DNA from: Porphyra umbilicalis
Taxonomy: Eukaryota > Rhodophyta > Bangiophyceae > Bangiales > Bangiaceae
DNA: 64,000 nt
Assembly (NCBI GenBank): GCA_002049455.2
Contig: KV918822.1
Location: forward strand, 124,001-188,000
Direction of reading: 5' to 3'
The translations under genes and the position numbers were made by a program. The notes beneath the pieces were generated by a model. That model saw only the letters and a list, made by a program, of their open reading frames with translations, was not told the DNA's origin and did not search any database. Below, one piece after another: positions 34,828-64,000 of the stretch; positions within the stretch are counted from its first letter, which is position 1; each line of letters opens with the position of its first letter.

Positions 34828-34917
34828 TAGGGCGTGCATGAACATGAAAAAGAAAGAGCAAGTATTATCAATGATTCCCCTTTGCCCAGCCGTGTCTACT
34901 GCCCCAAACCTACCGTG

Positions 34918-43529: not shown

Positions 43530-44844
43530 ATGGACGCGGGCGCCGCCGCCACGGCGGCGGACCCCCCCCCCCACCACTTATGGCATCACGGAGCCCATCT
43601 CGATGGCCCCCACCGAGCCCCTCGACGTGCAGCTGTCGGTCGACTTGGACGTGGCGCTCCCACGCCGAGTTAATACACTGTGGATCGGCTCTTAGAGCTC
43701 TTCTGGCTCTCCATTGGCAGAGGCCGTCAATTCGGATCATCCATTGGCTGCCATATGTTCTGTCAGATTAATGCAAAACACAAGGGCATTTTGGGCTAGA
43801 AGTGCCGTCAAAAACAACGTGGCTGCTCTGCAGCGCGCTCTTTTTGTCTTTCGGCCGATTCTCGTCGGCAAGATGCGCGCAGCAATGACTCGGCACAACC
43901 ACAGGGCTGCCGTGGTGGCGGTCGCCCACATGTATGCGCCTACCCCGCCACCCCGGCCCCGGGCATACGGATGTCTATGTATCAGCAAGGTATGCGCACC
44001 TTTATGACCTCCCCCTGAGTGAGTTTCCCGTCGGTTGTCCCAGCGCGTCCGCCCCCCCGCGAGATAATCACCCGGTGCACTCCTGTGTCTTTTCCTCCCT
44101 CGCACTGCATGTAACGACTTCTCACGCCTCCCCGTGCCCTTGTGTCATTGTCCCCCCCCCCCCCCCCCCCCCCCCCGCCTCCGCCATGTGCCCATCGCCT
44201 TGGTTGTGCCCGCTGCGTCTTTTCTTCTGCTCCGTCACTGCATTGCTCCTCGGTGCTAGGTATGTACTGCACCCCTCTCCCCCCCCCCGCACGCCCGTAC
44301 CCCACCACAGGCAGACGACAACGGCGCAGTGATTGCCCGAGGGCCCATAGAAAACCGGCCTTCAGGCGACGGTGCACGGGCCAGACGTGATCCGCGGATC
44401 AGTCAATGCCCGCAGCTCATCCTTGGATTGTCAGCAACCTCTCTCAGAGAGGCCATAGAGGCCAGATTTGGGACGCGTCCCACCCTTCTCACAGGGGCCA
44501 TAGAGGCAGAATCGGCGACGCGTCGCCAATTCGTCGTTTGCGGCCTCTCTGAGAGGGGAATTTTCTCTAGACCAATCACATTTTTGCACGTCGCGGCTTG
44601 GCTTTTCATACGTCCGATGTAAAGCTCAGAGCCGTAAGAGCCGGCTTTACTCGGCGTGCTCCACACCAACAAGCTGTACGAGTCGGCGGCGGAGGCGGCG
44701 CACCGGGACGCGGTCCTCGCCGACCTCTCCCACCTCGTCGTCGAGTGGGTGCGCCGCGTGTCGCTCGCGGCGGGCCTGCCGCCGGGGGCGGCGGCGGCGA
44801 CGGGCGCGCGCATCCTCACTTTTGGCTCCAACCGCCTCGGCGTC
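43530..44844 (+). pseudogene. PAP: Poly(A) polymerase N-terminal fragment, interrupted
   Basis: Two blocks match the start of eukaryotic nuclear poly(A) polymerase. Block 1, at about 43575-43660, has YGITEPISMAPTEPLDVQL; known PAPs have YGIT(P/E)PIS...PTE. Block 2, from 44660 to 44844, has NKLYESAAEAAHRDAVLADL, VVEWVRRVSLAAGLP and ILTFGSNRLGV; known PAPs have GLYES..., V..WV... and IFTFGSYRLGVHGPGADID. The catalytic Asp motif that should follow is absent, because the match ends at 44844 where the KDZ-like frame takes over. The probable start is the ATG at 43530-43532, joining block 1 across an 11-C run near 43562. Between the blocks sits a 998 bp inverted-repeat insertion. No remainder of the gene occurs in the window. 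Confidence 0.7.
43661..44658. mobile_element. 998-bp TIR element inside the poly(A) polymerase exon
   Basis: The left end begins CACGCCGAGTTAATAC and the right end finishes TTTACTCGGCGTG. Further in, CGGCTCTTA on the left pairs with TAAGAGCCG on the right. CTCC flanks both sides (43657-43660 and 44659-44662), a likely 4 bp target duplication. Counting one CTCC only, the polymerase frame continues without a shift across the site. No transposase inside. It holds a ~26-C run near 44150 and a smaller inverted pair around 44435-44560. Confidence 0.8.
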
Positions 44845-44867
44845 CCGACTTGTACGTACGGCCGGTC

Positions 44868-47405
44868 ATGGCGACGACTGAGTGTGGCGAGGGCGTGGTC
44901 AACGCGATTGTGGAGGTCTGGCGCTGCACCAAGTGCGGGATGCGGATCATCCCCGACGGTCGGAAGCGGGGCGTCGTCTTCTTGTCTGCGTCACTGCTTT
45001 ACTGCGAGGCGTTCCTGTTCGAGTTGGCGCTCGACTTGTGCCGCAACGGCTGCTCTTTGAGCTCGTCGGCGTACCCGCGCGAGGCCTACCGCGAGATGAG
45101 CGCCTCATTTAGTTCCCCGTTGTCCACCCTCCGGTTGAGCTCCGTCACTACGCTCCGCTCTGCGCTCGTGCTGTACCTTTCGCTGGTCATCGACGGCCTG
45201 CCGGCCACTGTGACAGAGTGCCTCAAGTGCCGTCGGGCGGACGGTAGCTACAAGACGACCGGCTTTGAAGGCCTACAAGTCGGCTATGGCATCCAGCACA
45301 TTCTCCCCTTTTTCCGCACGTCGGTACGGGTTCACGCGGTCGCGCGGGCGTCGCTCATCGCCCACGTGGTCACCGACGAGGCGATCTGCAAAGCGCTCGG
45401 CCGAGTGCTCGTCTCGAAGGCCGTTCCATCGTTGGAGGCCAACAAGGCCATCACCACCGTCGCGGCCATGCGCGGACACGTGATGGCCATCACGTTGATG
45501 GTCGGGTACCCGGTCGTTGACGGGCACGAGGTGGTCCTGGCGGGGCCAGAGCCGCATGGGAAGGGCGTGCCAAGGAAGCGCGGGTGGGACCCGGAGGTGG
45601 ATGGCGGCGTGCGCCAGGAATTGCTTGCTTTTTTCTCTGAGGTGTTTGACTGCGGACACGTGGCCCGCTCGCTCGCGTAGGCGGTAGTCGGCGCCCAGTA
45701 TGATCTCTGCCGCCGAGTTCCCGACGTGCTGATGCGGCGCATCGAGGCGCTGCTCAAGGACGGCGACGGCAAGGAGGCTACGGCAGCGGACGACAAGGAC
45801 GATGACGTTGACTACCAAGACGAGAACGCCGGGATTGAGGACACGCAAGGAGTGTTGGAATCTGTGGCGGGCGGTGATGCGCCGGCGGGCAACGGCAACG
45901 ACTGGGAGAGCGACGGGGGGGACGACCAAGTGGCGCACGACACCCTCCTTGACGAGGTGTTTGGCGATGAGTACACCCCGGCCGAGCCGCTGTACCCCAC
46001 CCAGGTCGAGTGGGACGACAGTGCCCCCCTGCGTATGTACGCAGATATTCTCGACGAGCCCGCATTGGTGGACAAGGGCGGCGCGCGGGCTGCCGCGCGT
46101 CTGCGCGGCCTCATCCTCCCGCCGCTCCCCCACATCCCCTCGACCGCGGCCTCAGGCATCAAGCTGGTGGATTTTGTGCGGGCGCTCGTGGTGGACCCGT
46201 TCACCGTGTGGGCGCCCGGCGTCCGGTGGGGCGCGGTGGACGCGCTCATCGAGGCGCTGTCGGCCAACGACTTCTCGCTGACCATATTGGCCGGCGCTCT
46301 CGGACGAGAAGATGTGACAGAGCAGCGCTTGCTCCGTGGTGCCGTCGCTTGTCTGGGGCCTGCCTTTTGCCTGTTTCCACGCGGGCGGGAGCTGTTTGTT
46401 GGCGTCCTTTCCTCCCTCAAGAAGACGTGCCAGGCGTATGACAAGCACGTCGCCGACGCGACAGAGGACGCTGACAACAAGACCAATGCCGCGGGTGACC
46501 GGGGCGTGCCCGACGAGGGCGGCGACGGCGGCGACAGCGACACGGGTGGCAACCGCGGCAGCTGTGGCTCGGGTATGGGAGGGGATGGCGACGATCACGA
46601 CAAGGGCGGCTGCATCGGCGAGCCCATCTCCCGCTTGGAGATGTCACTCGCCCACCCCAGCCACACCTTCACGCCGCAGCAGTAGACGGCAACTTGGTTG
46701 ACTGGGGAGGCCACCGAGGCCGGCTACCGCGCCGTTTACAACGACCCAACGGACCAGGGCAACGACTACTTGCGCACAGGCGTCTGGGCGCCGGGCCTTT
46801 CATGTGTGCGCGCCATGCCGGGCTTTGTCGGGGCGGCGAGCGCGCAGACGGACGCGCCTGACTGCCAGCACGAGATGGGCAATAAGAACAGGCGCACGGC
46901 GGGCACCTTCGGCGTTACCTGCAACTGCGCGCACCCCAAGTGCGTCGGGTTTTTCGTCCTCGACGGCGCCGAGGGGCAGCGCATGCCAATTGAGTTTGTC
47001 GTGCAGCGGTTTGCGACGCTCCCGGACGTCATTGTCTACGACTTTGCCTGCGCCAGCCTCAAGACCGCTCTCGTGCGGCTACCCTACGTTGCCAAGCGGG
47101 TGGCGTTGCGCGTTGACCGCTTCCACTGGCGGAAAAACCACAAGGACCTCACGAAGGCGATGTGCCCCGACTCCTATGTGACCATGGACGGGACCAACAC
47201 GTCATCGTCGGAAGAGCGCAACGCGCTCTCGCGGCGGCAGCAGCACCACCTGCGGCAGATGAACCAGAAGCACTTTATTATCTTCAGCGTGTACCAGCAG
47301 GCACTGTCCAACGTGATTGCGTTGTACCGTGACAACTTGGACAAGCACACGACACACAAGTGGCCAGAGTGGTTCCGTAGGGTGCACGTAGACAATGGAT
47401 GGTAA
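44868..47405 (+). pseudogene. KDZ-like transposase with two in-frame TAG codons
   Basis: One frame spans 846 codons to a TAA at 47403-47405, broken only by TAG at 45678-45680 and 46683-46685. N-terminal part: WRCTKCGMRI and a helical block. Middle: a long acidic linker. C-terminal part: VTCNCAHPKCVGFFVLDG, IVYDFACASLKTAL, VDRFHWRKNHKDLT and NTSSSEERNALSRRQQH. The CxC, YD..C, DRFH and N..S.E..N elements in this order match the Kyakuja-Dileera-Zisupton (KDZ) transposase superfamily, which uses an RNase H-fold DDE core. The second TAG follows two CAG codons, so CAG to TAG is plausible. The 5' side abuts the poly(A) polymerase fragment at about 44845 and probably lacks the natural N-terminus. Terminal repeats were not found. 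Confidence 0.7.
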
Positions 47406-48510
47406 ACAGGCCACGCTTTCTTTACATATAACTCCTTGCCCGCACAGAAGTATCACTAACGGACGCCATCGACACACATATATCAGAAAAGAGCCGGAAA
47501 GCCAAAGTGAGGGGCTGCGCGCTCTACTGGTGGGGGAAAAGTGCAGGCCTCCGCATGGCCGCGGCCCGTCGTGGTTCAGGGCATACGTGCTGAGAGAGGC
47601 AGAGGAGGCACTCGCGGCGCTGTGCAGAGTGGCTGTGTAAGAGCAAAAGACCAGCTTCTAGTAGAGGGGAGCTGGGGGCGGCGGCGGCGGTGGGGCCGGG
47701 AGGCTGCGGCCGGCCTGCAGGCGGTCCAGCCGGCAGCGGCGGCAGAGCAACGCCCCGTGGCCGTAGCGGTGGAGCTGCAACGGGCCCAGGGAACTCCGCA
47801 ACGCCGCAGTGCCCCCGCCCTCCGCGGCACCATAGGCATGCGTCCAGCGTTGTGTTTGACACTGCATTTACCTTTGCCTCACTCTGTGCCCCTCCAGCCA
47901 CCCACATCCCCACCCCCCGCTTCATTCGCCGCCCCGTTCTCATCTTCAGAGTCTGCCCCGACCAGTGGCACTAGCACAGGCATGTCGTGCGAAACCGTCA
48001 GCGGCGTGCGGCTCAAATCTTGCTGCCGCCGCTCCCAACTGGAACAGTGCCACGAACCACGGCTTGCGGCCGGGCAGGAGGAGCCACATTGACGACAAAG
48101 TGCAGCTGCCGCACCGCCCTGACATGAAACGCCGAGCCGATGCGGCTGTAGAGGGGAGGGGACAAGACGGGGCAGGCATGAGACTGCTGTTCGTCAAGGG
48201 TGCTCCAGCGGGAGGCTACAAACACATTTGTGGGGCACTGGTAAAGGACTTGTTGTGAACCTGCTAAAGAAAAGTAGGCCAGCTGGCTGCGGGTTTGGAG
48301 CCCAACGCCTTCTCGCACGCCAATCCTGCAAGAAGCCTGACCTAAGCGAGGCAGGATGTGCAGGACGGCCAATGAGGCTGAAGATGTGTGCGCATGAGGG
48401 TCCTCGGTGAATCCGATAACGGACAGACAATGTCGCGCCGCATGTGTCCAGACACCAGAGGCTTACACTGTGAGGCAGCATACACAACGCAAGAACAGTG
48501 CCCGGCGCCT
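47406..48510. other. Intergenic, no gene seen
   Basis: Short frames on both strands, none with recognisable features. It should contain the 3' end of the KDZ-like element. Confidence 0.4.
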
Positions 48511-49900
48511 CTATTTCGACTGTCCACCGGGCACGTGTTGTGATGCCTTGGTGCCCTTGGCCGCCCAGGCGGCCGCCACGCGCGCCGTGCGCGCCGCCTT
48601 GGCGGCTGCGTCGGCCGCACACATTTTCACATTGTGCCCCGTTGTCCCGCAGCCGCCGCATCGGCGCAAGCGGCCACGCGTGCCGCCGCCGCCGCTCGCC
48701 GGCGCGCCCCCTGCGCCGGCACCCGCGTCGTCGCCCGGATGGTCCCCCGCGTCGGGGGTTGCCATGGGGATCAAGCCCTTGGCCGCGGACAAGACGCTGC
48801 TTGCGGCGTGACGGGCTCGCGCGCACAGGCGCCGACAGGCGACCACCGTGGCATTGTCGGCACCTGTCGCAGCGCAGGCGGCAGCGTCTGCAGTGCCGCC
48901 GTCCCCAGGGACGGCAGCGGGTGGTCGGTGTGGCGGCATGGTCACCGCGTCGACGGCTCGCAGTACTGCGGTCGATTCCGACTCGGCGTCGCCAAGCGCT
49001 GCCGTCGCGTACGACGTGGTGCCCCGCGCGTGTACGGGGTTAGCTGCGAGCAGCTTGGCCAGCAGGGTGCTCGCGTCTCGCAAGGGGCCCACCGGCTCCG
49101 CGTCGCCGACCGCCTCGCTTGCGGCGGCGGCGACGGCGACTTCGACCGTCGCGGACCGCACGGCAGATGCGGCACTTTGTCGCGCGGCGTCCACGCGGCC
49201 GCCAGCCTTGATGGCCGCGTCCCCGCCGGTGGCACCCAGGAGCGCGACGGCGTCGTCACGGTCGAGGTTCTTGTCGACGGGTCCGTCGACGGGGCCGTCC
49301 CCGCTCCCGCCGTCCTCACAGCCGCTTCCACTAATGGTCTGTGCGGCGGGGTCGGTAGCTGCCGCTGACGGGGGGGGCACCCCGCCAGGCACACGCGGGC
49401 CGCTCGGGACACTTGTTGACGGCGCAAGGCGCGCGGGGACGCCCCCCGTTGAAGTGTGGGCGACTGTCGGGGGCACCCCTTCCCACCCGAGGAAGTAGAC
49501 CGCCGTGGTCGCCGGCAATCGCAGAGGCGCGAGTGTCGTCGCCGGGACCGCCCGCGGCACCGGCTCTGGTGGTCGCGGCCACGGCCCGCGCGCCGCCGCC
49601 TGCGGTGCCCCCACCCGCGGGCCCGTTGCCGCTTGTCACACCCGCCCGTGCGCCATTGCCGCTGCCGGCACCACCGCCCGCCATCATGGCCGACTGCCGC
49701 GTCGCGGTGCGGGCGCGACGCGCTCGCCTCGCCGTCGACGTGCCATGTGCCCCCCCCTCGTCCGTGGATGACCCGTCGTCTGCGTCGCCGCCGGGTTTCG
49801 CCCCAAAGCCTTCCAGCGGGACGGTGCCGCACGCATCGGTACCGCCTCCAGCCGCGGGAAGCGAGTGTACGCTGCTGGCGACGCTCGGCGGTGCGTCCGC
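48511..49900 (-). CDS. Disordered protein with C-terminal CCHC zinc knuckle
   Basis: The minus frame from about 49490 to the TAG at 48511 encodes an Ala/Gly/Asp-rich protein. It has a helical stretch LLAKLLAANPVHARG and a C-terminal RRCGGCGTTGHNVKMC, which fits CX2CX4HX4C exactly. Such knuckles close many MULE-type and retroelement proteins and also occur in RNA-binding proteins. Upstream, protein-like sequence continues in a neighbouring frame (KPGGDADDGSSTDEGGAHGT near 49790 and QSAMMAGGGAGSGNG near 49680), so one indel near 49500 separates the parts. No transposase core is visible, and the role is unknown. Confidence 0.45.
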
Positions 49901-52900
49901 CGCATGGCGTCGTTCAGGCGAGCACGGGCGTGCCCCCCGACACCCGCCGCGTCAGAGACGCGGGGATTCGGGCCCTGCCGAACAAACCCCCACACACCAG
50001 GGTGTGTCGCGTGCCCCAGAGGCATACGGGCACTGTCACCCACGTCGGCCATACCTCTACGTACCGCGCACCGTTCCGGCGGGGGGCACCACGGCGGGTG
50101 ACACCGTCTGCCGGCCGGGGTGGGGGAGGGGGGCAGCCGGGGGCGTACAGATGGAGCCGCTGTCGAAAAGGGGGCGGTGCGTACCAGACGCCCCGCGCCG
50201 CCGCCACGAGCGGCGGCGGGGGGCGTCGCACTGACAAGCGCCGTTGCGCGTACCGGGGCCGCCCATCAGAGCAGGCCAGTGTCGCTTTTTCAGGCGCTGG
50301 TACGGAAGCCGGCGGGTGGAGCAACATGACAGACACCGCCACACGGCACGACACTGTACGGTGGGGTGGGGCGCGGCGTCCCTCGTTGCGCGACGCTGTG
50401 AGAAGGTGTAGGCCCCAGACATCACGGCGATGCGGGAAGGCCCATACGGCGCGCCGCCCGAGCATGGAGAGCGTCGGAAGACTGACACACGCACAAGCAC
50501 GTATGCAAACGGGGCGCCACCGATGCCGGGCGCGCGGCTGCGATAGAGAGCATGTCCACATTCGACCGACGCCTGTGGCGCCGACGCACGCTGCTGAGCG
50601 GGGCCCTGGTACGCCCAAAGCACGTTGACAGACATGTGTGAATTCAAACCGCGCACGCAACCCTTGATCCAGGTCGGCCGTGTTTATGCTCGCACCTTCT
50701 CCCCGAGGTGCACACATGCAGGCGTATATCTCACACACATCCCCATTCTACATGCACGTGTTTGTGTGGTGGTGGTACCGTAGTGGTAAACCGCACCGGC
50801 GGGCGCCTACTTGTGACGCGGTAGATTGCCGACCATGTCCGGACCCGTCCCGTGCGCGTCGTGGGCGGCAGCTGCGTCCAGTCGTCCCCGGGCAGCCGCG
50901 CGTCCCCTGCGGCCACACAACGGGCCGCGCGCACCCGCCCACGTCGTACCCCAAACGGCCCCGTCGCCTGAGCGACAGACGGGGAGTCTGCCACCGCGCG
51001 GCTGCACGGGGCCGCGCGCCCCACGCACGGGGGCCCGGGCGGTGCCACCGCGCAAAGGGTGTGTCGCGGCCCACATGTGCGTCGTGTGCGCGACGGGCAG
51101 TCCCCCACCGCAGCCGGCCGCCTGACCTCATCAAGCCCCATTGCACGCGCCGGTTTGGGCGCATGACGGCAGGGGGCTTGGAAGGTGGCGGGAGGGTACA
51201 CCTCACCACGCCGACTCGACGAGCGTCGAGTCCTTCCTCGGCCAACCACAAGCCAACATTCGACCTCGGGCAGCAGCCACTGTCGATGGTCACACCCAGT
51301 ACAGTATTTGGGGAGGTGTCCGCCCCCCACCGGCCAACCGCTCCTGGTGCGCACATTCTAGGGCCATGTCGGCCTCCCTGGACGGTCCCGTCAGCAGCTG
51401 TCTCCTGCGATGAGATCCGAAAGCGCTATCCTCCAGAGGCGTGATCTTGGTCCAGAATTGCGCCAGGGACAGTGCCCGTGGCATGCGGCGCGCACCTGTA
51501 CCAGTGGGCGTGGGCGGCTGTGCGCCCCCGTGTCAGCAACGGCGAGGTCATGCGCGGCGGTCGCTTCCGACGACGTTGTCTCCAACGTGACAGGGTTGGA
51601 ATCTGGTCAGACGGTGGGGGGGGCACCATTGAGACAACCTATCATGTCAAGGATTCATCATTCGACCCCTTCGGCAGCGGCTCCGTCTCCCCGACGACGC
51701 GTGGACGCGTACATGTGGCGTGGGGGCACGACAGACGCGGGCCGCTGCGTCCCGCGCACACTCGAGAGCGCGTCGGGACGGATCGTAAGCGTCGGGTCGT
51801 TATCTGTGAAAACATCTTTTGAGAGCCACACACGTCGTGTCCCACACGAACTTTTGGAATTGGCGCACATCACTGTTTGTCCCCACGCGGCACGACAGCC
51901 GCGCACCCCATACGCGGTGTGCACTGGCCGATGCCCGTCCTCGCGCTCGGTTGGACCTCGCGTGGGACGCGGTCCGCGTGACCGACCGTGCCCCCAGGTG
52001 CGTCACTGGAGGAGGCACAAAACGCCACGAACTGCAAGGAAAGTCGCCTGTTCACACGCCTGAATGTGTGGTACAGACCAGTTCGCGCGTGACAGCAATG
52101 AAAAACAGAACACGAAAGCCCCGTACGACTGTCTGTTATGCGCAAATGGAGCGGGTGGGGGTGATCAGCACGAGGTGGTGCGTATGGCGTGTCGCCCTCC
52201 AACCTGGTTTCGACTTGGAATGGGGGCTGGGGCGAAGCGTGCGACTGTTTGAGCCCAACAGGCTGCGGTGTTTGCCCCCACCAGGCGCGCTCAGTCGTGT
52301 GCTGCAACCACGTTGTCGATTGCGAACGCGCAGGAGGTACCATTTGAGCGAGCAACACAATCAACGCAGTTTGGCTGAATCTTGAAAGGTAGCCCACCGT
52401 CACCCAAGCCTATGAAAGAAAAGCGCTGTGCGGGCGGATGTCTGGCGCGCCGCACGCGCAAGGTCCCATCACCGACACCCCCGGCGCGCACGCATCGACG
52501 ACGTAAACGTCGATCGGCGGCCACGCGTCGATCGACGACCTGGCGCCGGTGGGGGTAGGTGACGGACACACCTAGGTGATGTGGTCGGCTGGGGGTGCGA
52601 TGCCTCCGGTCGCGGGTCCTCGAGGTGGGTCACACGCCCGTCCTCAGCTGCGTCCCCCGCCCGCTGAGCGTGGGTGCCGAGCGTGCGTGCCGTCCGGGTG
52701 CCGGCAAGTCACCTCTTTGTCGCGTATATAAAAGAGCTGAATATGTGCCCGGTGGTGACGGGGTCAACCAACCAGACCGCCGGGCCACAAGGAAAAGAAA
52801 AACACGCACACGCTGCAGAGTCACGCCGACCTATACACGGCTGCAGCGGTGGCCAAGCAGAGATCGCCGACGCCAAGTAGAGATCCTTGTCACGCACGTC

Positions 52901-53358: not shown

Positions 53359-53441
53359 CTTGTGTTGCCCCTCGTACTTTCATGTATTGATTTTGCTCAC
53401 CTTGCGTGGCCCCTCTTACTTCTGTGTATTTCTTTTCTCAG
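53359..53441 (+). repeat. Subterminal ~41-bp direct duplication outside the left TIR
   Basis: CTTGTGTTGCCCCTCGTACT (from 53359) and CTTGCGTGGCCCCTCTTACT (from 53401) begin two diverged tandem copies ending at the TIR. TTTCATGTATTGATTTTGC in the first resembles the outer flank of the right TIR read in reverse, so the terminal repeat may extend outward. Confidence 0.6.
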
Positions 53442-53491
53442 ATGACCGTGCACCTATTCTCACCGGATATTCCGAGAGCATTCCGACGGCG
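53439..53491 (+). repeat. Left terminal inverted repeat of the 10-kb element
   Basis: 53 bp beginning CAGATGACCGTGCACCTATT. It matches the reverse complement of 63413-63465 at 47 of 53 positions without gaps (counted by eye). Weaker similarity continues inward for about 45 bp. Confidence 0.85.
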
Positions 53492-53735
53492 GTGGAGGAC
53501 GACAAATCCATGGACATTTTTTGTATGCTCGCAGTATTCCGATGCATTGTTTTGCGCAGACGAGTCGATCTGCGTGTGTGTCTTTTACTGTTGTCCAACA
53601 GACGCATTGCGTCCGCCAAACCAACACAACGGGGGCCACAGGGGCCCGTCTGCGGTCGCGGTCACCGCCCCGTGGCTATGAGCCCACGTCATGAGCCCCA
53701 CCCGCCAGCATCCCGGGACAATGGCACCCCCCCCT

Positions 53736-54983
53736 CTAACCAGCCGCCCTATGAGTGTCACCACCGTCGACCCCACCATCCATATCGACGCCCTCCCATT
53801 CATCTTGATCGTCGCCACCCTTCCCGTCATCCTCCGCGACGCCGTTGGCAGAGCCTGCGATTGTGCCACCGCCAGTCGCGACGCCGTCCTCCCCGGGGTC
53901 CACCTGCATGGGATCGTTTGCCGTGGCGGCTCCCTCGTCCGCGTCTACCATGCTCGTAACATCCTCGTCCTCCTCGTAGAGGCCGTCACTGCCCTCCTTC
54001 TGGTCGTCCGCGTCGCCACTGCCCTCCTTCTTGTCGTCCGCGTCGCCACTGCCCTCCTTTGTGTCGTCCGCGTCGCCACTGCCCTCCTCGTCGTCGTCGT
54101 CCGCGTCGCCACTGCCCTCCTCATCGTCGACGTCCGCGTCGCCACTGCCCTCCTCGTCGTCGTCGCCCGCGTCGCCACTGCCCTTCTCGTCGTCGTCCTC
54201 GTCCATGGGCACATCCACCATCTCCATTTTTTGGTAGATCGTTTCAGTGCTGGGGGTCCCCTCCTCCCGCCCGCCGTTCGCGGCGGTCCCGTCCTCCTCC
54301 TGCCCACCGTCCACCACGGGGTGGCTTGCAGCGCCCGCGTCGTCCGTCGCCCCACCGTTCGCATCGGCGGGGACGGCTGAGAGTCGCGGCGGGGCGGGAA
54401 GTTCCCGCGACAGACCGACGACGGTTGGGTCGCCGTCGCCATTCCGGGATGTCACGGAAACCGACCAACCCGGCACACGAGACACGGGGTTGTGTTGGAC
54501 ACTGACAATGTTGGCCACAAACGAAGACCAGCCCCGGGTCTTGATAGAAATTTCGGCCACATTCAGGACGTCCAGGTTGGTCAGGTCTGCGAGCCCGACC
54601 GGGGGTGCCCGCAACCTGTTGCGTGCAAGACCCAACCACCGCACATGCAGGAGCCCCGTCACATCGGCAGAACGAAAGCGACAGTCGGTCGTGGTGAGGG
54701 AGCGCAGCGTCGCGGCAAGTGCGTTGAGGGGCCGTTTGGGCCACCTGCGCAGCGGGTTGAACGAAATGTCGAGCACACGCACACCCCAGTCCGCCGACCA
54801 TCCAAAGCAGCTTAGGTTCTCCAGCTGGTTGCGAGCGAGGTGGATGCACCAAAGCGGTCGTGTTTTAACCACGGCATTGATTCCCTCGACGATGGACGCA
54901 GAAACATCGTCCTGGGTAATACGTTGCGAAGAGGCAAACCAACAACCACTCACGCGGATCGTCCAACACCACGCCCTGGTCAT
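53736..54983 (-). CDS. Leucine-rich-repeat protein with acidic repeat tail
   Basis: 415 residues from the ATG at 54981-54983 to a TAG. Residues about 45-170 are leucine-rich repeats: WCIHLARNQLENL, VRVLDISFNPLRRWP, VRWLGLARNRLRAPP and LTNLDVLNVAEISIKTRG, with the LxLxxNxL spacing. A Pro/Ala linker follows. From about residue 270 an acidic tail is built of six units of EGSGDADDDD type, encoded by a 30/33 bp minisatellite (about 53985-54205). LRRs bind proteins; the partner is unknown. The first LRR is preceded by only ~45 residues, and an alternative upstream start in another frame (to about 55197) is possible through a GTGAGT...CAG pair, but no clean splice restores the frame. Last gene before the left TIR. 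Confidence 0.65.
   Translation of the reverse strand: MTRAWCWTIRVSGCWFASSQRITQDDVSASIVEGINAVVKTRPLWCIHLARNQLENLSCFGWSADWGVRVLDISFNPLRRWPKRPLNALAATLRSLTTTDCRFRSADVTGLLHVRWLGLARNRLRAPPVGLADLTNLDVLNVAEISIKTRGWSSFVANIVSVQHNPVSRVPGWSVSVTSRNGDGDPTVVGLSRELPAPPRLSAVPADANGGATDDAGAASHPVVDGGQEEDGTAANGGREEGTPSTETIYQKMEMVDVPMDEDDDEKGSGDAGDDDEEGSGDADVDDEEGSGDADDDDEEGSGDADDTKEGSGDADDKKEGSGDADDQKEGSDGLYEEDEDVTSMVDADEGAATANDPMQVDPGEDGVATGGGTIAGSANGVAEDDGKGGDDQDEWEGVDMDGGVDGGDTHRAAG
53985..54205 (-). repeat. 30/33-bp minisatellite encoding acidic repeats
   Basis: Six units, each encoding GSGDAD plus acidic or K/Q variants. Unit lengths are multiples of three, so the frame of the LRR gene is preserved. Confidence 0.85.
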
Positions 54984-55788
54984 TCATTGGTGAACACAGG
55001 TCGGGGGTAGAGACTGGGGGCGCCGAAGATGGTGGTGGCGGGTCCACGGGAACGACCCGACGGTGGCCGCGTCGGAAGTGAGCACGGCGGGAGGTGGCAC
55101 CCCGAGACGACCGTGTCCTCAAATTGGCCGCAGGGGCGCTCTTGACGTTCTTTCGCCCTGGCGGACATTGCGTCTCAACAGGGGGGCACGTGGACACGCT
55201 AAGCAGTCAAACAGCAAAGGCGCCCCTCACCAATTTTGGCTAGAGTACCCACTGCACATGTGGACCACACTGATGGGAAGACCACTCAGTGAATGTACTG
55301 GTGCCAGGGCTGTTGGTGTGGATGTTTTTCAGCATCCCACGTCGGTCCGTTTCCCATCGGATGCATTCCAGACGTTCCGTGCTGTTGCACAGTAGACCCC
55401 CCTGCCGCCGTCACGTTGCGTGGTGCTCGGTCGGGGTGCTCGGCGCGTCCCGTGGCGGGGAAGGGGCTGATAGCAGCAGCACCGTCTCGGATGGGAGGAG
55501 AGATGCAACAGACGGCAACAGTAGGATTGCTGAGGGTCTCAGATGCATTCAACTGGACGATGTGGACACAGTGGACCGTCTCGCGTCCGCGTCTCGTGGT
55601 GTTGTCCTAAAGGGCCTCTTTATCAATGCAAACAAAACAGACACACTCCCCATGCCGCACGAGCTGCTCCTGGTAGCGTACTCAACACAATGGTGCCCGC
55701 TGAGAGAGTCTGTACAAACTGAGCACACCGGCGTCGCTTTATAGGTCTTGAAACTCTGTTCCACGTCGCGACGGCCACGCATTTTGGC
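54984..55788. other. Spacer inside the 10-kb element
   Basis: Short frames only. It may hold the LRR gene promoter or a missed 5' exon. Confidence 0.35.
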
Positions 55789-56871
55789 TCACCTGCGACG
55801 GGTGCGCTTGGCAGACCCCCTGGATGCGGGCAAGTCGCCCGCTGCAGACCGCGCGCGCTTGGGATGAGACGGGGCATAGTCCACATCACCGTCATCATCC
55901 GGTTCGCTGCCGCTGCTGTCATGGCTGCCCTGGTCGACTGTGTCCGCCGCGGCAGTCCCCGGCGGACGACGCGCGACGACAGTACCGCTCCGCGTCGGCG
56001 TGCGCCGGGTGTCACGCAGCCGACGTCCGGTGCTGACGGAAGTGTCGACCCTCGCCGCCGACACCGCAGGGGTTGATCCCACGTCGACCGCCGCCGCTGC
56101 CGCCGCCGCCGCAGCAATACGCCAAGAGCGCTAGGGGGATGCGGGCCGGGCGTCAAAAGGGTCAGCCACACCAGCGTCCGGCGTGTCCCCGCCGCCTGTC
56201 CGCTTGCCGGCTGCAGCGGTCGGCTCGGGAGGGCGCTGCAGTCCGACCCCATGGGGAAACAAATGCGTCGGGCCAGCGTCGCGCTGCGCAGGTGTGGGGC
56301 GCCTGTCGGCAACCGACGCACCGGCAACCGGCGCAGTCGGCAGAGTGGATGTCGGCACCACCTGGGTCGGTGCAACAGCGCCCGTGGCGTCAGGTACGAC
56401 CGGTGCAACCGGCTTTGCCACCGACTTGGCCGCCACGTCGGGCGCTGCTACGGCAGCAGGCGCCCCATGTGACACGGCTGCAACAGGGGGAGACGATGTA
56501 GGACCACCAACGCCCGGCGCTGCCGGTACTGCGGGCGACAACGCCTCGTCGTCTCTGGTCGAAGCCGCGTCAAGGGGCGCCCCATGTTGACTGTGACGGG
56601 CGAGGCGCCGGGTGCGCTTGCCCGGCGGGTTGGCCCACGCGAGCGTCGCCATCTGACTGTCATTGACAATCGGCGTCGCCGCCTGGCCCGCATGGCGCCT
56701 CATCATCTCGCTCATCAGGGTGGACAGGAGGGACGCCTCCTTCAACACCTCCGTCCGCGTTGACTGCTTGCGGGGCGGGTCGAGGTCCCGGGCCAATGGT
56801 GGGAAGGCAGGGGGAGCTGGGGACAGACGGCGCCCGCGAGGTGGCGGCGGTGGCGGTGGAGCAGACGCCAT
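55789..56871 (-). CDS. Disordered Pro/Ala-rich protein with in-frame TAG
   Basis: The ATG at 56869-56871 starts MASAPPPPPPPRGRRLSPAP. A short helical segment follows (TRTEVLKEASLLSTLMSEMM), then a long Ala/Pro/Val region, to a TAG at 56131-56133. The same frame continues without another stop or any ATG for 114 codons: an alanine run, a Thr/Arg-rich part, an acidic block (GSEPDDDGDVDYAPSH) and a basic end PKRARS...AKRTRRR, then TGA. The nuclear-signal-like end suggests the second part is real coding. It is either two-part because of a nonsense change or expressed by readthrough. Function unknown. It lies downstream of the Ulp1-like gene in the same direction. Confidence 0.5.
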
Positions 56872-57425
56872 CTGGGGTGTGTGGGTGGGGTGTCGGGAGA
56901 GCGCCACCCCGACTCGGGGGTGGGTTCCACCAGAACCGGGTCGCGCGGGGGGGGCGCACGACACGAGACCGCCGACGCGCGGCCAGTGATGCACAGCCGG
57001 CGGCTGCCACCCGCCTTGACCACATCCGGCGCAGTTCCTGCGCAGCAGCCCTGCCTGCGTGAAAAGCAACGAATGGGACAGGTTGGACCGCGCGACGGGA
57101 CATCAACCCAACCGCACAGACTGTGTGAGGGGTGCCCAAACAACCGGTCCTGGGAGTGCAGGGATCTGAGGGGCCGCGCGCCTGACAATCAAATGTGGGG
57201 TTCCGCTGGCGCGGTGAATGACCAATGCGATGCGTCCCAAGAATGGAGGTGGAAAACAAAAATCAACCGCTACACCTCACCCCCATCGACCGTACGACTC
57301 GTCGACTCGGACGCCTCATCCAGAAACGAGGACATCCACTTCAAAAACCGTGGACCGGAATCCACGCCGAGCACCCAATCTCGACCGTCAGCTTTGCGCG
57401 AGGCAAACACCTCTCCCAACAATCA
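56872..57425. other. Spacer inside the 10-kb element
   Basis: Between the Ulp1-like stop and the next ATG. No supported gene; probable promoter of the disordered-protein gene. Confidence 0.35.
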
Positions 57426-58309
57426 TCAACGTTTGCCTGCGCTCGTGACCAGCCACGTGCGCAGCGCTTCCAAGGCATAGGCCCCACAAGTCAAGCTGCC
57501 CTCGACCTGAGGGCCGGTCGGCACGAGTGTCCAGCGGACGGTGCCACCAAGGAATCGTGCCAACATGGGCCGATTGGGTGGCACGTCCGTGTGACGCCAA
57601 CGGAACTCCTCCAAAAGCCACGCGCGCAGAGACGCGGCCACGTGCTCGTGGTCGCAGAGACCGATCGCCGAGTCAAACATCAGCAGTTGGCATTGGTGGA
57701 GCGTCTGCCGTTGGACGGCGGGCGCATCGAGCCGTCGGCGGCCGGTCACGACCTCGGTTATGGCGGCCTCCAGGTGCAAGTCCTTCAGCAGACCTGGGAA
57801 ACCACAGAGAACGGCCAGGATCCAATGCTGCCCCCCGTGACGATCGGGAGGAAGACCGTCTCCATCCTAAATAGTGACGTGCTCCGAGAGTGACGATGTA
57901 TCGTGGAGTGGAAGGCCTCTGACGGATCAGACGCCCACCGCGCGGGAGACGCGTGGCGCGCCCCGCTGCCGATAAAATCGGGGTTGGCAGAGTAGCCACC
58001 CAGAATCATTCCGACCGTGGCGGACGGCATGAGCGACGTGACGCCAGCTTCTCCCGCAGAACAGTAGAGAGAAATGAGGAGCTGGCCGATCGTGTCGACC
58101 GTCTCGTCCAGTAGCATGGTGCCACGGAGCAGCGCGACGCGCTCGTCCGTGCAAAAGGCGTACGCACGGGACGGCAGGACGAGGGTCACTGCAGGCAGGG
58201 GCTTGTAGGGCACGGGGGTGTCGGATGGAACCGCAGGGGCGACGGCACGATTGCGGCCTCGCACCAGCGTCTCGAACGTGAGCGGCGGGCGTGTCGGGGG
58301 CGTCGCCAT
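57426..58309 (-). CDS. Ulp1-like (C48) cysteine protease
   Basis: The ATG at 58307-58309 opens about 160 residues (MATPPTRPPLTFETLVRGRN...), including VDTIGQLLISLYCSAGEAGV and ETVFLPIVTGG. The next frame carries HWILAVLCGFPGLL, then LLMFDSAIGL, and near the end GPQVEGSLTCGAYALEAL. These supply the His (HW), Asp (FDS), oxyanion Gln and catalytic Cys in the order and spacing of Ulp1/SENP peptidases, which cleave SUMO-like or polyprotein substrates. The two frames are separated only by a 6-G run at 57831-57836, one base short of the continuous frame. About 294 residues, ending TGA. Ulp1-type proteases are known in Polintons and several DNA transposons. Assignment is strong in motifs, untested in activity. 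Confidence 0.7.
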
Positions 58310-58658
58310 TGTGCAGGGTCGCGGGGGGTGTCGACAAACAGGACAAGGACGCACCCTTGAGGGTCCCGGATGTAAGGTACCGGCTGTCGCGGGCACACCC
58401 TTGTAAGTAATGGGCGTGCAATGGATTCAGCTGATTGAAAACAACCACACCCGTGTCGCCCAACAGAATGAACGGCTGCCATGACGTGATTGACCAGCCA
58501 GAGTCTGAATAGCAATTGTGCTGCGCAACAACGCAGACAATGACAGCGGTTGTCCAAAAATACGTGGGAAGTGAAAACAAGACGTCGAGAAAGCAATTGC
58601 ATGCCTCACACGCAGCGGAGCGTACGACAGGTGCAAACGATTATGATCGGAGAAAATA

Positions 58659-60397
58659 CTACGCACCGTCGGCCGCGCTCCCGGCCTTCGTCGACGAGGA
58701 GGTCCACCCATTGCTGGACGCCGAGCTCGACCCACTCTCATCGTCCTTGTCCCCAAAACCGTCATCACCGGCCGTGTCAATGGGCGGCGGTGTAGCTTTG
58801 GCCATCCTCACTGACGGGGTCACCGATCGAAAATCGTTGAGCTGCAACGGCATCTGCCAATCGCGAAACAGCTGCTGTTCCTCTGCCACATCTCGCGGGT
58901 TCCACGAACGGCTCCCGGAAAAGGGCTGGGTGGAGACTGCATGTGGTAGGTCCTTGTCAAAATGGAGGCCATACACCTTGGCTTCGCCCGTGCGCAGCGG
59001 CGGCGCCGGGGCCAGGTCCGACAAAGCGTCCCGCATGGCCAGTTGCACAACATGAGAGGACGTGTCTGCTGCGAGTGCAATCGTCACGCGCGCAATCTGC
59101 TCCCACGACGGCCACGCACGCAAAACCGATTGCAACACCAACAAGATGGAAAAGGGAGGGATAGCAATCAGGCGGGGTCGATTCCCGTCACGGGGCCAAA
59201 CCCACAACGCGTGCGCATTGACGGACGTGACAATTGCCCGGACGCCTTCGCCAGTGTCGACACTGGACAGTCCGTCGCCACGGTCCGTGGCTGGTCCGCG
59301 CGCGGCGACACCAAAGCGCCACGGCTCACCAGCCGGGGCTCGCTCCCCCGTCACGTAGACCCGACCTCCACGGATGTCGGCTTTGCGTGACGAACCGAAC
59401 GTTGACGCATTCACGCGCACGTGGGCCCACGACATGTGCCCAAACAAGAAGGTCACAAACAGGTCGAGGTGGGCAACGAGCGGGCGCCAACGTTGGGGCT
59501 CGGTGGACGAAAACTCTTGGTCGATGTGTTCGGCCGCGCGAACATTTTCGGTTGCAGGGGACTGCTCATCCATGGTGCCGCACAGCAGGTTCCACAAAAT
59601 CACGGACACGCCGGTACCAACATCGCCCATCATCAGAGCGCTTGACGTGAGTGGCAGCACCGCGTTTCCACGGAGAAACAGGCCGCCAAACAGGGAGGCG
59701 AAACGTGCCTGGTACGCCGACTGACCCATCTGCGTCGTGTGCGTCGCCACGGTGGTGCGCGGGTGACGGCCGGCCACGTACGTCTGCACGTAATTGGCGT
59801 GAAGAAGGCCAGACCGGAGGATTGCAAACTCAGTGTCAACCCACACACCGACAGGTGGCTCAAACGCGTCGTGCATATCAGGGAAGAGACGTGCACGCGG
59901 CAGGGCAGCGACCGTAGCGAACCTTGCGCGGTTGTGGTCAGGCTCAGGTCGAACACGCGTCACATCATCCAGCAACGCCACAACCCGGGTCTTGACGCTG
60001 CCCAAGTCACGACAGGTAATCTGGTGATCTGTCCCGACTTGGGTCTTTACCGGTCGGACGGGCGTCGGTTTCAGCAAGGCCGAGCCGCGCAGAAGCGTGG
60101 ACGCCGACGGCGTGGCGTCCAGCGACTTGCGAGGTTGGGCGGACGGAGAGGGGGCCGCCCCCCGCTGAAGCGACCGCGCTGCCCTCGCGGGGTCCCGTCT
60201 TTTGGCGCCACATCGGGTCGTGTCGGGTTGGACGACAAGCCTCCCGACTTGGTGGGCGACCTGGGTGTGGGCGCGCGGCCACCACGTGACGACCCCGCAG
60301 ATCGCGTCGACGTACGCGGCTGGGCAGTGCCGCGATGGCCTGTCCCCTTGCTCGGTACGCCTCTGGAGCCCGCACCGGGTGGGACAGTACGCAACGG
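58659..60397 (-). CDS. Unknown protein, same frame after the repeat-protein TAG
   Basis: The last 470 codons (to a TAG at 58659) are clearly protein-like: PVGVWVDTEFAILRSGLLHA, a hydrophobic helix region (VSVILWNLLCGT; HLDLFVTFLFGHMSW), IPPFSILLVLQSVLRAW and an acidic Ser-rich tail. There is no ATG at its start. The first clear ATG is near 59870, after many well-formed residues. Reading upstream, one G missing from the 6-G run at 60158-60163 links it to a frame that is open to the TAG at 60398 ending the preceding gene. So this may be the C-terminal half of one long protein rather than a separate gene. No family recognised; not obviously DDE, recombinase or polymerase. Confidence 0.5.
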
Positions 60398-63029
60398 CTA
60401 AGACCGAGACATTGGCGTGGTTGCTGCGCCTGCCGCAGGTGCCGAACCGGGGCCAGATCCACGCGATTCGTCGCTGCCTGCAGGTGGCGCCTCTGCGGCA
60501 CCCGCAGGTCCGCTCCGGTCCCCCGCAGGGAACGCCTCGGGGACCACCGCAGGTCCTCTCCCGCCCCCGGCAGGGGGCGCCTCTCCAAAACGCGCAGGTC
60601 GGCTGCCGCCCCCGGCTGGGGGCGCCTCGGGGCCCACCGCAGGTCCGCTCCCGCCCCCGGCAGGGGGCGCCTCTCCGACACCCGCGGGTCCGGTGCCGCC
60701 GCCCGCAGGGGGCGCCTCGAGGTCCACCGCAGGTCCGCTGCCGCCCCCCGCAGGGGGCGCCTCGGGGTCCACCGCAGGTCCGGTTCCTCCCCCCGCAGGG
60801 GGCGCCTCGGGGTCCACCGCAGGTCCGGTGCCGCCCCCCGCAATGGGCGCCTCGAGGTCCACCGCAGGTCCGCTGCCGCCCCCCGCAGGGGGCGACTCGG
60901 GGTCCACCGCAGGTCCGGTGCCGCCTCCCGCAGGCGGCGCCTCAGGGTTCACCGCAGGTCCGCTGCCGCCCCCGGCAGGGGGCGCCCCTCCGACACCTGC
61001 AGGTCCGCTCCTGCTCCCGGCAGGGGGCGCGTCGGGGTCCACCAAAGGTCCGCTGCCGCCCCTCGAACGAGGCGCCTCGGGGTCCACCGCAGGTCCGCTG
61101 CCTCCCCCAGCAGGGGGCGCCTCGGGGTCCACCGCAGGTCCGGTGCCGCCCCCCGCAGGGGGCGCTTCGGGGTCCACCGCAGGTCGGCTCCCGCCCCCGG
61201 CAGGAGGCGCCTGTCCGACACCCGCAGGTGCGCAGCCGTCCTTCGCAGGGGGCGCCTCGGGGTCCACCGAATGTCCGCTCCCGCCCCCGGCAGGGGGCGC
61301 CTCGGGGACCACCGCAGGTCCGGTTCCGCCCCCCGCAGGGGGCGCCTCGGGGTCCACCGCAGGTCCGGTGCCGCCTTCCACAGGGAGCGCCTCGGGGTCC
61401 ACCGCAGGTCCGATCCCGCCCTCGGCAGGTGGCGCCTCTACGGCACCCGCAGGTCCGCTCCGGTCCCCCGCAGGGGGCGCCTCGGGGTCCGACGTAGGTC
61501 CGGTGCCGCCCCCCGCAGGGGGCGCCTCGGGGTCCACCGCAGGGCCGCTGCCGCCCCCGCGGGTGTCGCAGCGGGGTCAGCTCGAGGCGAATCACCACCA
61601 CCTACAGGAGCCGCAGTAGGCTCAGCCACGGGTGCGGTGTTGCCCGCCGCAGCAGTCGCGGGCGGGTCCCCAACAGTCGCAGCAGATTCCTGGCTCATGT
61701 CTGCAAAATAGTCCATCATGCCGCCGCCGGACTTGTTTGATTCGTCGTCTTCGGAAACGGCGGGACGTGTCGATGCCAACCGCCGCGCACCCGCTCCGTC
61801 GGACGAGCTCTCAGTCGGCAAAAGTTCCGACAACAGAGCGGGGTCGTCCTCGACGCCTGGAATGCACCACGGGACAGGCGCGCCCCCATCATCCAACGAC
61901 AAACGAATGAGTGCTCGCAGGCGCTTGGCCTTGTCAACAAACAACTCTGATGTGCTGCCAATAGGCGATGACGACGCAACGGCCGCCGACGTCTTTGGGA
62001 CACAAAAGAAGCGAAAGGCGTCGCAATCGCAGCCGACGGATGGACGACGACCCCACCGTACAGATCGAGGATGTCGTCGTCGAGGATGCTGAGTCGATCT
62101 TTGGCACACAAGACCATCCCACAGACGTGCAAAGACACGGCAGAGAACAGGTCAGAGGCGACCGGAACGGAGAGCTTGGGCGTCTTGTCCGCATCTCGCA
62201 ACTGCACATCTTCCTGATGGCCAGTGTGTAGATCAAGCCAGGCCTCCGCGGTTTGCAACGTGACGACGCGCACCGCGTCGGCGAGCGCCGGAGAGACGAG
62301 CGCCGGATTCAAGTCGGCCAGTGGCAATCGGAAAGACGGTTTGCCGAGCATGCTCATGGAGTACCGCTTGTGCGGGTAGCCACCGAGGAAGCGCCGCCCG
62401 TCGGTGATCCTGAGGAACTCAGCCCAGGCGCTTGGACTGTTTAGGAACGGCCACACCGCGAGGACGACCGTGCTCAGCCCCATGACGCGAGTTTGCTCAT
62501 CCCCCGGAACGGTGCCGTTGGTGTAGAGCGCGGCGACCGTCCGGGACGCCAGAAACTGCTGGGCAGCGGCGTGGGTAGGTGGTGGGTGGTCGCCCCACAC
62601 ACTGTCAAACAGGAGTTTGACGCTCGTGAGCGTGTCCGTCAGGGTCACACTGGCACGCTTGTCACCAACGTCGTTCAGCTGCATGGACAACCCGACCCAC
62701 TCGGTGGTGGTCAGATAGCGGGGGCGGCCATCGTCGTCTGTGAGCACATCGACGACAAACTCATAGTTTTGAGGGATGGCGCGTGCGTCGACCAACTGCT
62801 TCAAGGCGCTGCCACGGTGACAGCAGTCGACAGGACGGGACTTGGCCGCGTCCTCCGGTGCAACGCAGACAACCATGCGGAACACGTTGGTGGAAAAGTG
62901 CCCTTTTTGGACCTCGATCTTGATGCGATTGATGTGTTCGGGATCCACCGTCCGAGCAGACTCGGCCGGTAAACAAAGGTCCGCGACGGTGATACGACGG
63001 GACACCGTCTTGCCCACGGCGTGCGACAT
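60398..63029 (-). CDS. ParB-like domain protein with long EAPPAGGG repeat tail
   Basis: The ATG at 63027-63029 starts MSHAVGKTVSRRITVADLCL. Residues about 15-110 resemble a ParB/sulfiredoxin-like fold: VDPEHINRIKIEVQKGHFST, MVVCVAP, then DCCHRGSALKQLVD in place of the usual DG.HR..AL motif. Similarity is moderate. About 230 further residues look globular (WPFLNSPSAWAEFLR; GKPSFRLPLADLN). A Ser/Asp-rich linker precedes about 24 tandem 15-residue repeats (EAPPAGGGSGPAVDP type). The frame ends in TAG at 60398-60400. Two one-base gaps in G runs (62051-62054 and 61554-61558) separate its three frames. First gene next to the right TIR; a DNA-binding role is only inferred. Confidence 0.5.
60470..61560 (-). 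repeat. 45-bp coding minisatellite, about 24 copies
   Basis: Strict 45 bp period, a multiple of three, encoding (V/A)DPEAPPAGGG(S/T)GPA units in the minus frame. Many substitutions are conservative in that frame (S/T, V/A), while other frames give Arg/Trp-rich products, which supports the minus frame as coding. Confidence 0.9.
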
Positions 63030-63412
63030 GCCACCGCGTCGGGTGGGAGCAAACAACCAACACAACCACAGAGTGGGACCACGGAATGGGGGAGGGCGAG
63101 CGGGGGTGGGGGGGCACAGCGCATGAGCGCTGGGGTCGGCCCCTGGGAGGGACCAACGGTGCACACACCACAAGCAACCGCGTGCGCGCCGGGGGTGGCA
63201 AGAGCAGGACGACACCGGTCGATCGGCCGATGCACGGTGGAACCAAAGTTTCCGCGCTTATGTTGGTGCTGCATGTCTCGGCACCGACTCGACGGTCAGG
63301 ACGAGTCCGAAATTGACCAATCAGAGCGCCTGAAAAGTGTTCATGCATTGCACACGGGTGCGGCGTGGTGGGCTCGCACCACCAACAATTCCAAGTATTT
63401 GCTAGGAAGCAA
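63030..63412. promoter_or_regulatory. Promoter region of the first gene of the element
   Basis: 383 bp between the ParB-like gene start and the right TIR. No motif identified. Confidence 0.35.
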
Positions 63413-63465
63413 CGCCACTGGAACGCTCTCGGATTATCCGGTGAGAATATGTGCACGGTCATCTG
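63413..63465 (-). repeat. Right terminal inverted repeat of the 10-kb element
   Basis: Reverse complement begins CAGATGACCGTGCACATATT and aligns with 53439-53491 over 53 bp with six mismatches. Both arms incidentally encode MTVH(L/I)FSPD in opposite directions. Confidence 0.85.
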
Positions 63466-64000
63466 GCAAAAAAGTACATGAAATTACGTTTCATGACAAG
63501 AAGCGGCGCACTTCTACTGATGGGGCGACTGTGAATCGACAGATTCTAAACTGTCAGCCTTGGTGTCATCATCGCGCACGGCATGATGGGGGGCCCTTGG
63601 CAGTGGGCAATGACGGGCCGCGGCGGTGTGGTGGGACCGCGCGCGGCACCTGCTTGGCTGGATGGGCGCCGCGGTGGTGGATCGAGCGGCGCCACTTTGC
63701 GATTTTGACGTGTTCTTACGGGCCGACCTTCACTGGTAGGGGCCGCTTTCGTCTTGATGTTTGACCCCGCGCCTACGTATCGGCGCCGGAGGGCCCTAAC
63801 CGCTGTGAGAGCGGCGGGCCTTTGATTTGTTTTGGACCCCTGGGCGCGCGGACGCGTGCGCCCTGTGGGGGCCTGCGTGGGCACCTCTGCGTCCACTTTG
63901 AAAGCGCCTGGAGGCGTGGTGGGACCGTGTGGGTGGCCGCGCGAGGGTAGATAAGAAGGCCCGCCGGCACCGGCTAGCGGGCGGCGGACCCGGGTCATCA
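63466..64000. other. Right flank, no gene seen
   Basis: GC-rich from 63590. Frames reaching the right edge have no recognisable features, so a partial gene cannot be excluded or supported. Confidence 0.35.

What the first reader, a model, noticed from the sequence alone, without database searches (positions are those of the whole stretch)
53439..63465. TIR-bounded ~10-kb element with an unfamiliar gene set
Two 53 bp inverted repeats enclose at least five co-oriented coding regions (ParB-like with repeat tail, unknown, Ulp1-like protease, disordered, LRR). The genes fill the interval, with 384 and 245 bp left at the ends. This is the layout of a large DNA transposon or integrated element, yet no known mobility enzyme, polymerase or structural gene is recognisable. 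The unknown protein at 58659-60397 or the ParB-like protein could be a new type of mobility or maintenance protein.
Basis: partly seen in the sequence, partly recalled or inferred. Interest (0 to 1): 0.85.

Follow-up and report, generated by a model that had tools for sequence, protein, structure and literature searches.

The report
Middle of a giant Fanzor-bearing transposon
What looked like a 10-kb transposon bounded by inverted repeats is really the middle of a much larger, many-copy mobile element in a eukaryotic genome, with an RNA-guided-nuclease-like gene at one end and DNA- and chromatin-modifying genes as cargo; the inverted repeats are an internal motif, not the ends.

Summary
The inverted repeats exist (62 nt, 85%) but are not element ends. 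The motif has at least 47 genome matches, lies upstream of several genes in both orientations and forms arrays. Homology between copies runs past both repeats: left to 48550, where another repeat cuts this copy; right, through nested copia-like insertions, to C62:208469, with further matching sequence at C62:231673-234400. 'ParB-like' and 'unknown' are one protein. Pieced together from several copies, the order is: AAA+ ATPase, ParB-like/DNA-methylase/SET-like gene, DGxHR-unknown protein, Ulp1, disordered, LRR, TnpB/Fanzor-like gene, end; the most compact locus spans 26 kb. The Fanzor-side end is sharp: 64 pattern matches on 55 contigs, nine read with unrelated flanks, two hairpins, CTGG|T, no inverted partner. 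40 of those 55 contigs show no DGxHR gene, so Fanzor elements without this cargo probably exist. Best reading: a giant Helitron-like or Fanzor-assisted transposon; its transposase and other end were not found. The window copy is decayed: in-frame stops, a frameshift, no Fanzor catalytic part.

The parts
48550..50350 (-). Block at the 5' side of the TnpB/Fanzor-like gene (Ala-rich, zinc-knuckle-like reading by eye); cut at 48547/48550 by a neighbouring repeat, so the catalytic part and the element end are missing in this copy
   Evidence: 86% nt over 1808 bp to C232:111770-113536, which lies 5' of the TnpB-like catalytic region there; that region itself has no match in the held part of C62; many other copies begin at query 1850/1851
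52339..52725 (-). Conserved block (91-93% between copies) upstream of the Fanzor block
   Evidence: 12 genome matches: the window itself, 10 over nearly the whole block, 1 partial
53425..53494 (+).
   Evidence: 47 genome matches; homology continues outwards past it
53736..54983 (-). LRR protein, acidic repeat tail
   Evidence: 415-aa ORF; 57-78% aa to pieces on C3, C5, C33, C67, C99, C141, C274, C334; LRR Pfam over cut-off in the diverged copy
56131..57069 (-). Disordered Pro/Ala-rich protein
   Evidence: ORF; short relatives in C5 and C274
57426..58396 (-). Ulp1-like cysteine protease, frameshifted near 57830 in this copy
   Evidence: Peptidase_C48 over cut-off in the C232 copy
58659..63029 (-). 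One gene: N-terminal DGxHR (ParB/DndB-like) part, Pro/Gly-rich 45-bp repeat linker (60480-61558), C-terminal domain of unknown fold; 4 internal in-frame stops here
   Evidence: 29 and 23 matched pieces of the two parts in the genome
63383..63491 (-).
63492..64000 (.). Element continues to the right; a nested copia-like element begins at 64897 in window numbering, outside the window
   Evidence: LTRs at 64897-65265 and 75386-75755, 98.9% identical; element homology resumes at 76114-81365 and on to C62:208469

Best explanation
The interval is the central cargo section of a giant, multicopy DNA transposon. Shown: a repeated unit with parts in a fixed order, AAA+ ATPase - [ParB-like + N6/N4-type DNA methylase + SET-like] - DGxHR/unknown protein - Ulp1 protease - disordered - LRR - TnpB/Fanzor-like gene, and a sharp, single-sided terminus about 45 bp after the Fanzor stop; the 53-bp 'TIRs' are internal. 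Inferred: the motif is a 5'-regulatory or binding site; the element moves from the Fanzor-side end by a single-strand (Helitron-like) or other transposase not identified in cis. The hairpin end doubles as the 3' end of a guide (omega/re) RNA, so that Fanzor cuts the empty homologous site and promotes copying back. The methylase, SET-like, AAA+, Ulp1 and DGxHR proteins act on the element's own chromatin (anti-silencing or maintenance), possibly by binding the dyad-like motif.
For: AAA+, methylase/SET, DGxHR, unknown domain, Fanzor 5' block and terminus keep order and strand in six diverged loci (C25, C31, C60, C88, C272, C363), and AAA+, methylase/SET, DGxHR, unknown, Ulp1, Fanzor block and terminus in three near loci (C5, C8, C33) (positions); most compact is C272:42540-68519, 26.0 kb. 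Terminus: of 8 diverged places read, 6 show the sharp end with different flanks (C25, C60, C88, C232, C272, C363) and 2 fetches missed it (C31, C232:87200); 3 of 3 near copies show it. Nine flanks unrelated (mean identity 0.24 over 55 nt, best of 36 pairs 0.35). 64 pattern matches on 55 contigs, 0 for the reversed control. TnpB-type zinc ribbon PF07282 E 1.6e-4, C4 and RD, with a DPG upstream. Methylase PF01555 E 1.7e-12 and 4.3e-10, phrog_67 E 7.3e-18. AAA PF00004 E 8.5e-15. Terminal 48 nt form two hairpins, z -3.3, 2 of 200 shuffles as good. dN/dS 0.55-0.77 between the window and near copies: coding, weakly constrained.
Against: No transposase seen in the part read. 40 of the 55 terminus contigs have no DGxHR match, so the end is not tied to this cargo. 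On C3, C22, C82 and C94 an AAA+ block and a terminus lie on one contig but far apart. Between the located parts of the six diverged loci, stretches of up to about 25 kb were not read; in C232 no methylase gene lies between the DGxHR gene and the neighbouring unit. RepHel (PF14214): 27 matches over cut-off on 22 contigs, none of them among the 55. The 120-nt end as RNA is not unusually stable (z -1.2). TnpB similarity is below curated cut-offs, PDB gives no Fanzor match, and the gene of C232 is read in two frames. SET rests on E 0.24 (below cut-off) plus motif reading. No target-site duplication or clean empty site; the one candidate junction (C232) has extra bases and an N.
Confidence: 0.62

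Rival explanations
1. A discrete ~10-kb TIR transposon.
For: Inverted repeats of 62 nt flank the gene set; copies on C5, C8 and C33 also have the motif upstream of the DGxHR gene (C5 and C33 also after LRR); ~1.6-kb internally deleted forms on C3, C141, C274 keep motifs at both sides.
Against: Homology of these copies, including the deleted ones, continues past the motifs; in C5, C8, C33 and C274 a further motif lies between the unknown domain and Ulp1; arrays of the motif occur.
Confidence: 0.03
2. Modules rather than one element: a Fanzor element that also exists alone, an AAA+ element, and a middle gene set, living together and recombining.
For: 40 of 55 terminus contigs show no DGxHR match. 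AAA+ block and Fanzor 5' block are about 87% identical between families whose DGxHR proteins are only 27-30% identical.
Against: Order and strand of the located parts are kept in nine loci of two families; no sharp boundary was seen between modules.
Confidence: 0.3
3. A non-autonomous or cargo-loaded Helitron mobilised in trans by RepHel.
For: 3' hairpin then CTRR (CTGG), with T after it in 6 of 6 ends found by alignment (3 more were picked with a pattern that includes the T); single-sided end; RepHel genes in the same genome; Fanzor1 known in Helitrons (PMC3627910, sections read).
Against: No RepHel on any contig that carries the terminus; 5' TC end untested.
Confidence: 0.33
4. Remnants of a tandemly integrated large DNA virus.
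For: Many genes, methylase, Ulp1-type protease, neighbouring copies on C232 and C5.
Against: No capsid or polymerase noticed in the ORFs read (not searched for by profile); 0 relatives in IMG/VR for three queries (DGxHR, unknown domain, Fanzor C-terminus) and none in phages for the DGxHR part; the methylase was not tried there. The end is transposon-like.
Confidence: 0.06

Closest known systems
Fanzor1-bearing Helitron2 elements of Chlamydomonas (CRe-1,2,3; Bao and Jurka 2013, PMC3627910, abstract and sections 6, 8, 9, 12 read)
   Same: Fanzor-type gene, 3' hairpin end, no simple TIRs, no transposase of their own described
   Different: Here at least 26 kb with further conserved genes; RepHel linkage and 5' end not shown
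OMEGA/Fanzor systems (PMC10432273 and PMC10711439, passages read)
   Same: TnpB-like nuclease whose gene ends next to the transposon end, which would supply the guide RNA scaffold
   Different: Nuclease activity and RNA untested; zinc ribbon has a long insert; weak profile scores
Giant eukaryotic transposons (review PMC6431247, passages read; Starships, Terminons, Teratorn recalled)
   Same: Tens of kb, many cargo genes
   Different: No captain recombinase, piggyBac transposase or polymerase noticed in the part read
KDZ/Plavaka transposons (recalled)
   Same: Large DNA transposons, some with Ulp1-type proteases (recalled)
   Different: The CxC4-like zinc-domain gene of this window (44571-45677, E 0.004, below cut-off) lies left of 48547, outside this element

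Membership tests
TIR DNA transposon of ~10 kb | Inverted repeats are the outermost conserved bases, flanks unrelated between copies | tested here: not met
   homology continues past the repeats
TIR DNA transposon of ~10 kb | Target-site duplication outside the repeats | not tested
   dropped once the repeats proved internal
Fanzor/TnpB | C-terminal [TS][TS]xx-C4 zinc finger-X(5,50)-RD (PMC3627910 section 6) | tested here: met
   TSQT-C..C ... C....C-PATYVG-RD in C232:107781-110657, by eye
Fanzor/TnpB | D 125-275 residues before it; DPG signature (PMC10711439 figure legend) | tested here: inconclusive
   VGWDPG present but about 500 codons upstream and in another frame; an intron or frameshift is needed
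Fanzor/TnpB | Curated profile cut-off | tested here: not met
   PF07282 22.2 of 26.3 bits; NF040570 11.3 of 100 bits
Fanzor/TnpB | Gene end adjacent to transposon end | tested here: met
   last codon ends at C232:107781, terminus 107734
Helitron | 3' hairpin followed by CTRR and T | tested here: met
   9 of 9 ends read; for 3 of them the T was part of the search pattern
Helitron | RepHel protein in the autonomous element | tested here: not met
   0 of the 22 RepHel contigs are among the 55 terminus contigs, unread parts included
Helitron | 5' TC (or T with hairpin), insertion A^T without duplication | not tested
   5' end not reached
Starship | DUF3435 tyrosine recombinase as first gene (recalled) | not tested
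   5' end not reached
Polinton/Maverick | Long TIRs, protein-primed PolB, integrase, capsid (recalled) | tested here: inconclusive
   the terminus read has no inverted partner near these elements; marker genes not searched for by profile

The most novel reading that the evidence does not exclude
A new superfamily of giant eukaryotic transposon: a Fanzor-like nuclease at the end plus a long-conserved chromatin toolkit (DNA adenine-type methylase fused to ParB-like and SET-like parts, AAA+, Ulp1, DGxHR-unknown protein), in which one of the unclassified proteins, most likely the 1.1-1.4-kaa DGxHR protein, is the transposase or an element-partition/anti-silencing factor that binds the dispersed dyad motif as ParB binds parS.
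Probability: 0.25. Interest if true: 0.85.

Novelty: new variant of a known kind. Interest (0 to 1): 0.6.

Why it matters
Fanzor nucleases are known in varied transposons, but what their host elements do is poorly described. A multicopy element of tens of kilobases with a Fanzor-like gene at its very end, together with a DNA- and histone-modification set kept in two deeply split families, would make two questions testable: whether Fanzor drives copy-back of eukaryotic transposons, and whether transposons carry their own epigenetic writers to escape silencing. It also shows how a promoter-like dispersed motif can imitate terminal inverted repeats.

Tried and rejected
TIR transposon: rejected. 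Window 48550 as the element end: rejected. C18:399498-401345 matches the sequence left of it at 97% and stops at the same base, with unrelated sequence beyond, so an inserted or abutting repeat ends there. C113:166416 as the second end: I read the shared query start at position 3 as a terminus and wrote that in notebook entry 3; one search shows only a mismatch near the query start, with homology continuing. Withdrawn. ~1.6-kb forms as MITEs: rejected, they are internal deletions in larger copies. Viral relatives: none for the queries tried. Structure prediction of the two window domains from single sequences: useless, mean pLDDT 32; no fold search made. PDB profile searches: only chance matches for the DGxHR, unknown and Fanzor parts. 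Rfam on L080: one sub-threshold match, taken as chance. Literature searches for such an element (listings read) showed none; the library holds open papers only. On the final recount I found that 40 of 55 terminus contigs lack a DGxHR match; for that I lowered the best explanation from 0.70 to 0.62 and the Helitron rival from 0.35 to 0.33, and raised the module rival from 0.20 to 0.30.

Full report
Setting. The window is C62:124001-188000 of an unnamed 83.8-Mb, 665-contig genome. RepHel genes and copia-like retroelements (read by eye) mark it as eukaryotic. Copies of the same sequences in that genome were the main evidence; genome counts are lower bounds by the tool's own statement.

The repeats. 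The inverted pair is real. The left arm with its outer flank matches ten other loci at 90-95% over 187-201 bp, so the outer flank is shared too. The arms have 47 and 40 genome matches, self included. In the fetched segments 66 copies (59 distinct) align; those segments were fetched because they match, so this is not a density. The core is CCAGATGACCGTG...TTCTCACCGGATAATCCGA, partly dyad. In C5 and C113 it sits upstream of the methylase gene, pointing to it, with homologous positions in C8 and C33; in C5, C8, C33 and C113 upstream of the DGxHR gene, pointing to it; in C5, C8, C33 and C274 upstream of Ulp1, pointing away; in C5, C33, C274 and C334 after the LRR gene, before the Fanzor block, pointing away from the latter. 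On C3, C274 and C265 it forms arrays, of about 110-bp period on C3 and C274. A promoter-like or binding-site role is inferred.

Extent. To the left, other copies match down to 48550 and no further, because another repeat, also on C18 at 97%, ends at 48547. To the right, nested copia-like elements (LTR pairs 98.9% and 99.8% identical) occupy 64897-75755 in window numbering; element homology then resumes at 76114-81365 and runs to C62:208469. AAA+ homology lies at C62:231673-234400; C62:215001-231672 was not read. The window thus holds part of one end-truncated, transposon-riddled copy that may stretch over about 60 kb.

Genes. ParB-like and unknown are one protein; relatives fall into a near group (about 65% identical) and a diverged group (27-30%). 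Upstream and divergent lies a gene with a ParB-like motif (read by eye), an N6/N4 DNA methylase and a SET-like C-terminus (E 0.24, below cut-off; motif read by eye). Beyond it is an AAA+ ATPase, shared by both groups at about 87%. Downstream follow Ulp1 (Pfam over cut-off in C232), a disordered protein, LRR, and a TnpB/Fanzor-like gene. No single copy was read from end to end; the order is pieced together. C232 lacks a methylase gene between its DGxHR gene and the next unit, which seems to be inserted there. dN/dS spans 0.22-1.38, 26 of 33 pairs within 0.5-0.9, as for a transposon whose copies mostly decay.

The end. About 45 bp after the Fanzor stop, six diverged copies stop together against six different flanks; two further fetches (C31, C232:87200) missed the end. 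Three near copies, picked by pattern, have the same end. Flanks of the nine are no more alike than chance (BLAST at E 0.1 gave 13 lines including the 9 self matches). The pattern occurs at 64 places on 55 contigs and the reversed control at none. It has no inverted partner near these elements. Two adjacent hairpins precede ACTACTGG, then T. This matches the Helitron 3' end and equally the place of a guide RNA scaffold. 40 of the 55 contigs show no DGxHR match: either shorter Fanzor elements share this end, or cargo was lost, or contigs end early. In C232 one unit abuts another at such an end inside the upstream region of its neighbour; the junction has extra bases and an N, so no target rule can be drawn.

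Mechanism. Shown: a multigene repeat with parts in fixed order and one transposon-type end. Inferred: single-strand or Fanzor-assisted copying, and a chromatin role for the cargo. Against a classical Helitron: RepHel genes of this genome lie on other contigs. The transposase, the second end and target duplications are open.

Literature. The abstract and sections 6, 8, 9 and 12 of PMC3627910 and passages of PMC10432273, PMC10711439 and PMC6431247 were read; other papers only as search listings.

Noticed in passing
window 46700-48547: Repeat (97% on C18, 76-85% on C47) whose right edge ends at the same base on C18; it truncates the Fanzor block of this copy.
   Followed up: partly
window 44571-46685: ORFs with a weak CxC4 (KDZ-associated) zinc-domain match, E 0.004, below cut-off; possibly a KDZ-type transposon remnant. 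ORFs at 29815-36567 looked similar by eye, with no Pfam match.
   Followed up: partly
C62:188897-199755 (L009, L070, L071): Two nested copia-like elements (by eye) with 98.9% and 99.8% identical LTRs: young insertions.
   Followed up: partly
C232:105041-107402 (L062, L076): Array of roughly 220-bp repeats upstream of the diverged DGxHR gene, in place of the near family's motif.
   Followed up: no
C113:165903-166346 (L073): About 445-bp repeat with 43-bp inverted ends, 95% identical at eight other loci: a MITE-like element inserted in some near copies.
   Followed up: no
window 20111-24385: Tandem array of 12.8 copies of a 334-bp unit, 98% matches.
   Followed up: no
C62:209360-210310 (L072): Protein-kinase-like ORF (by eye) beside the element's right part, just before a further copia-like element.
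   Followed up: no
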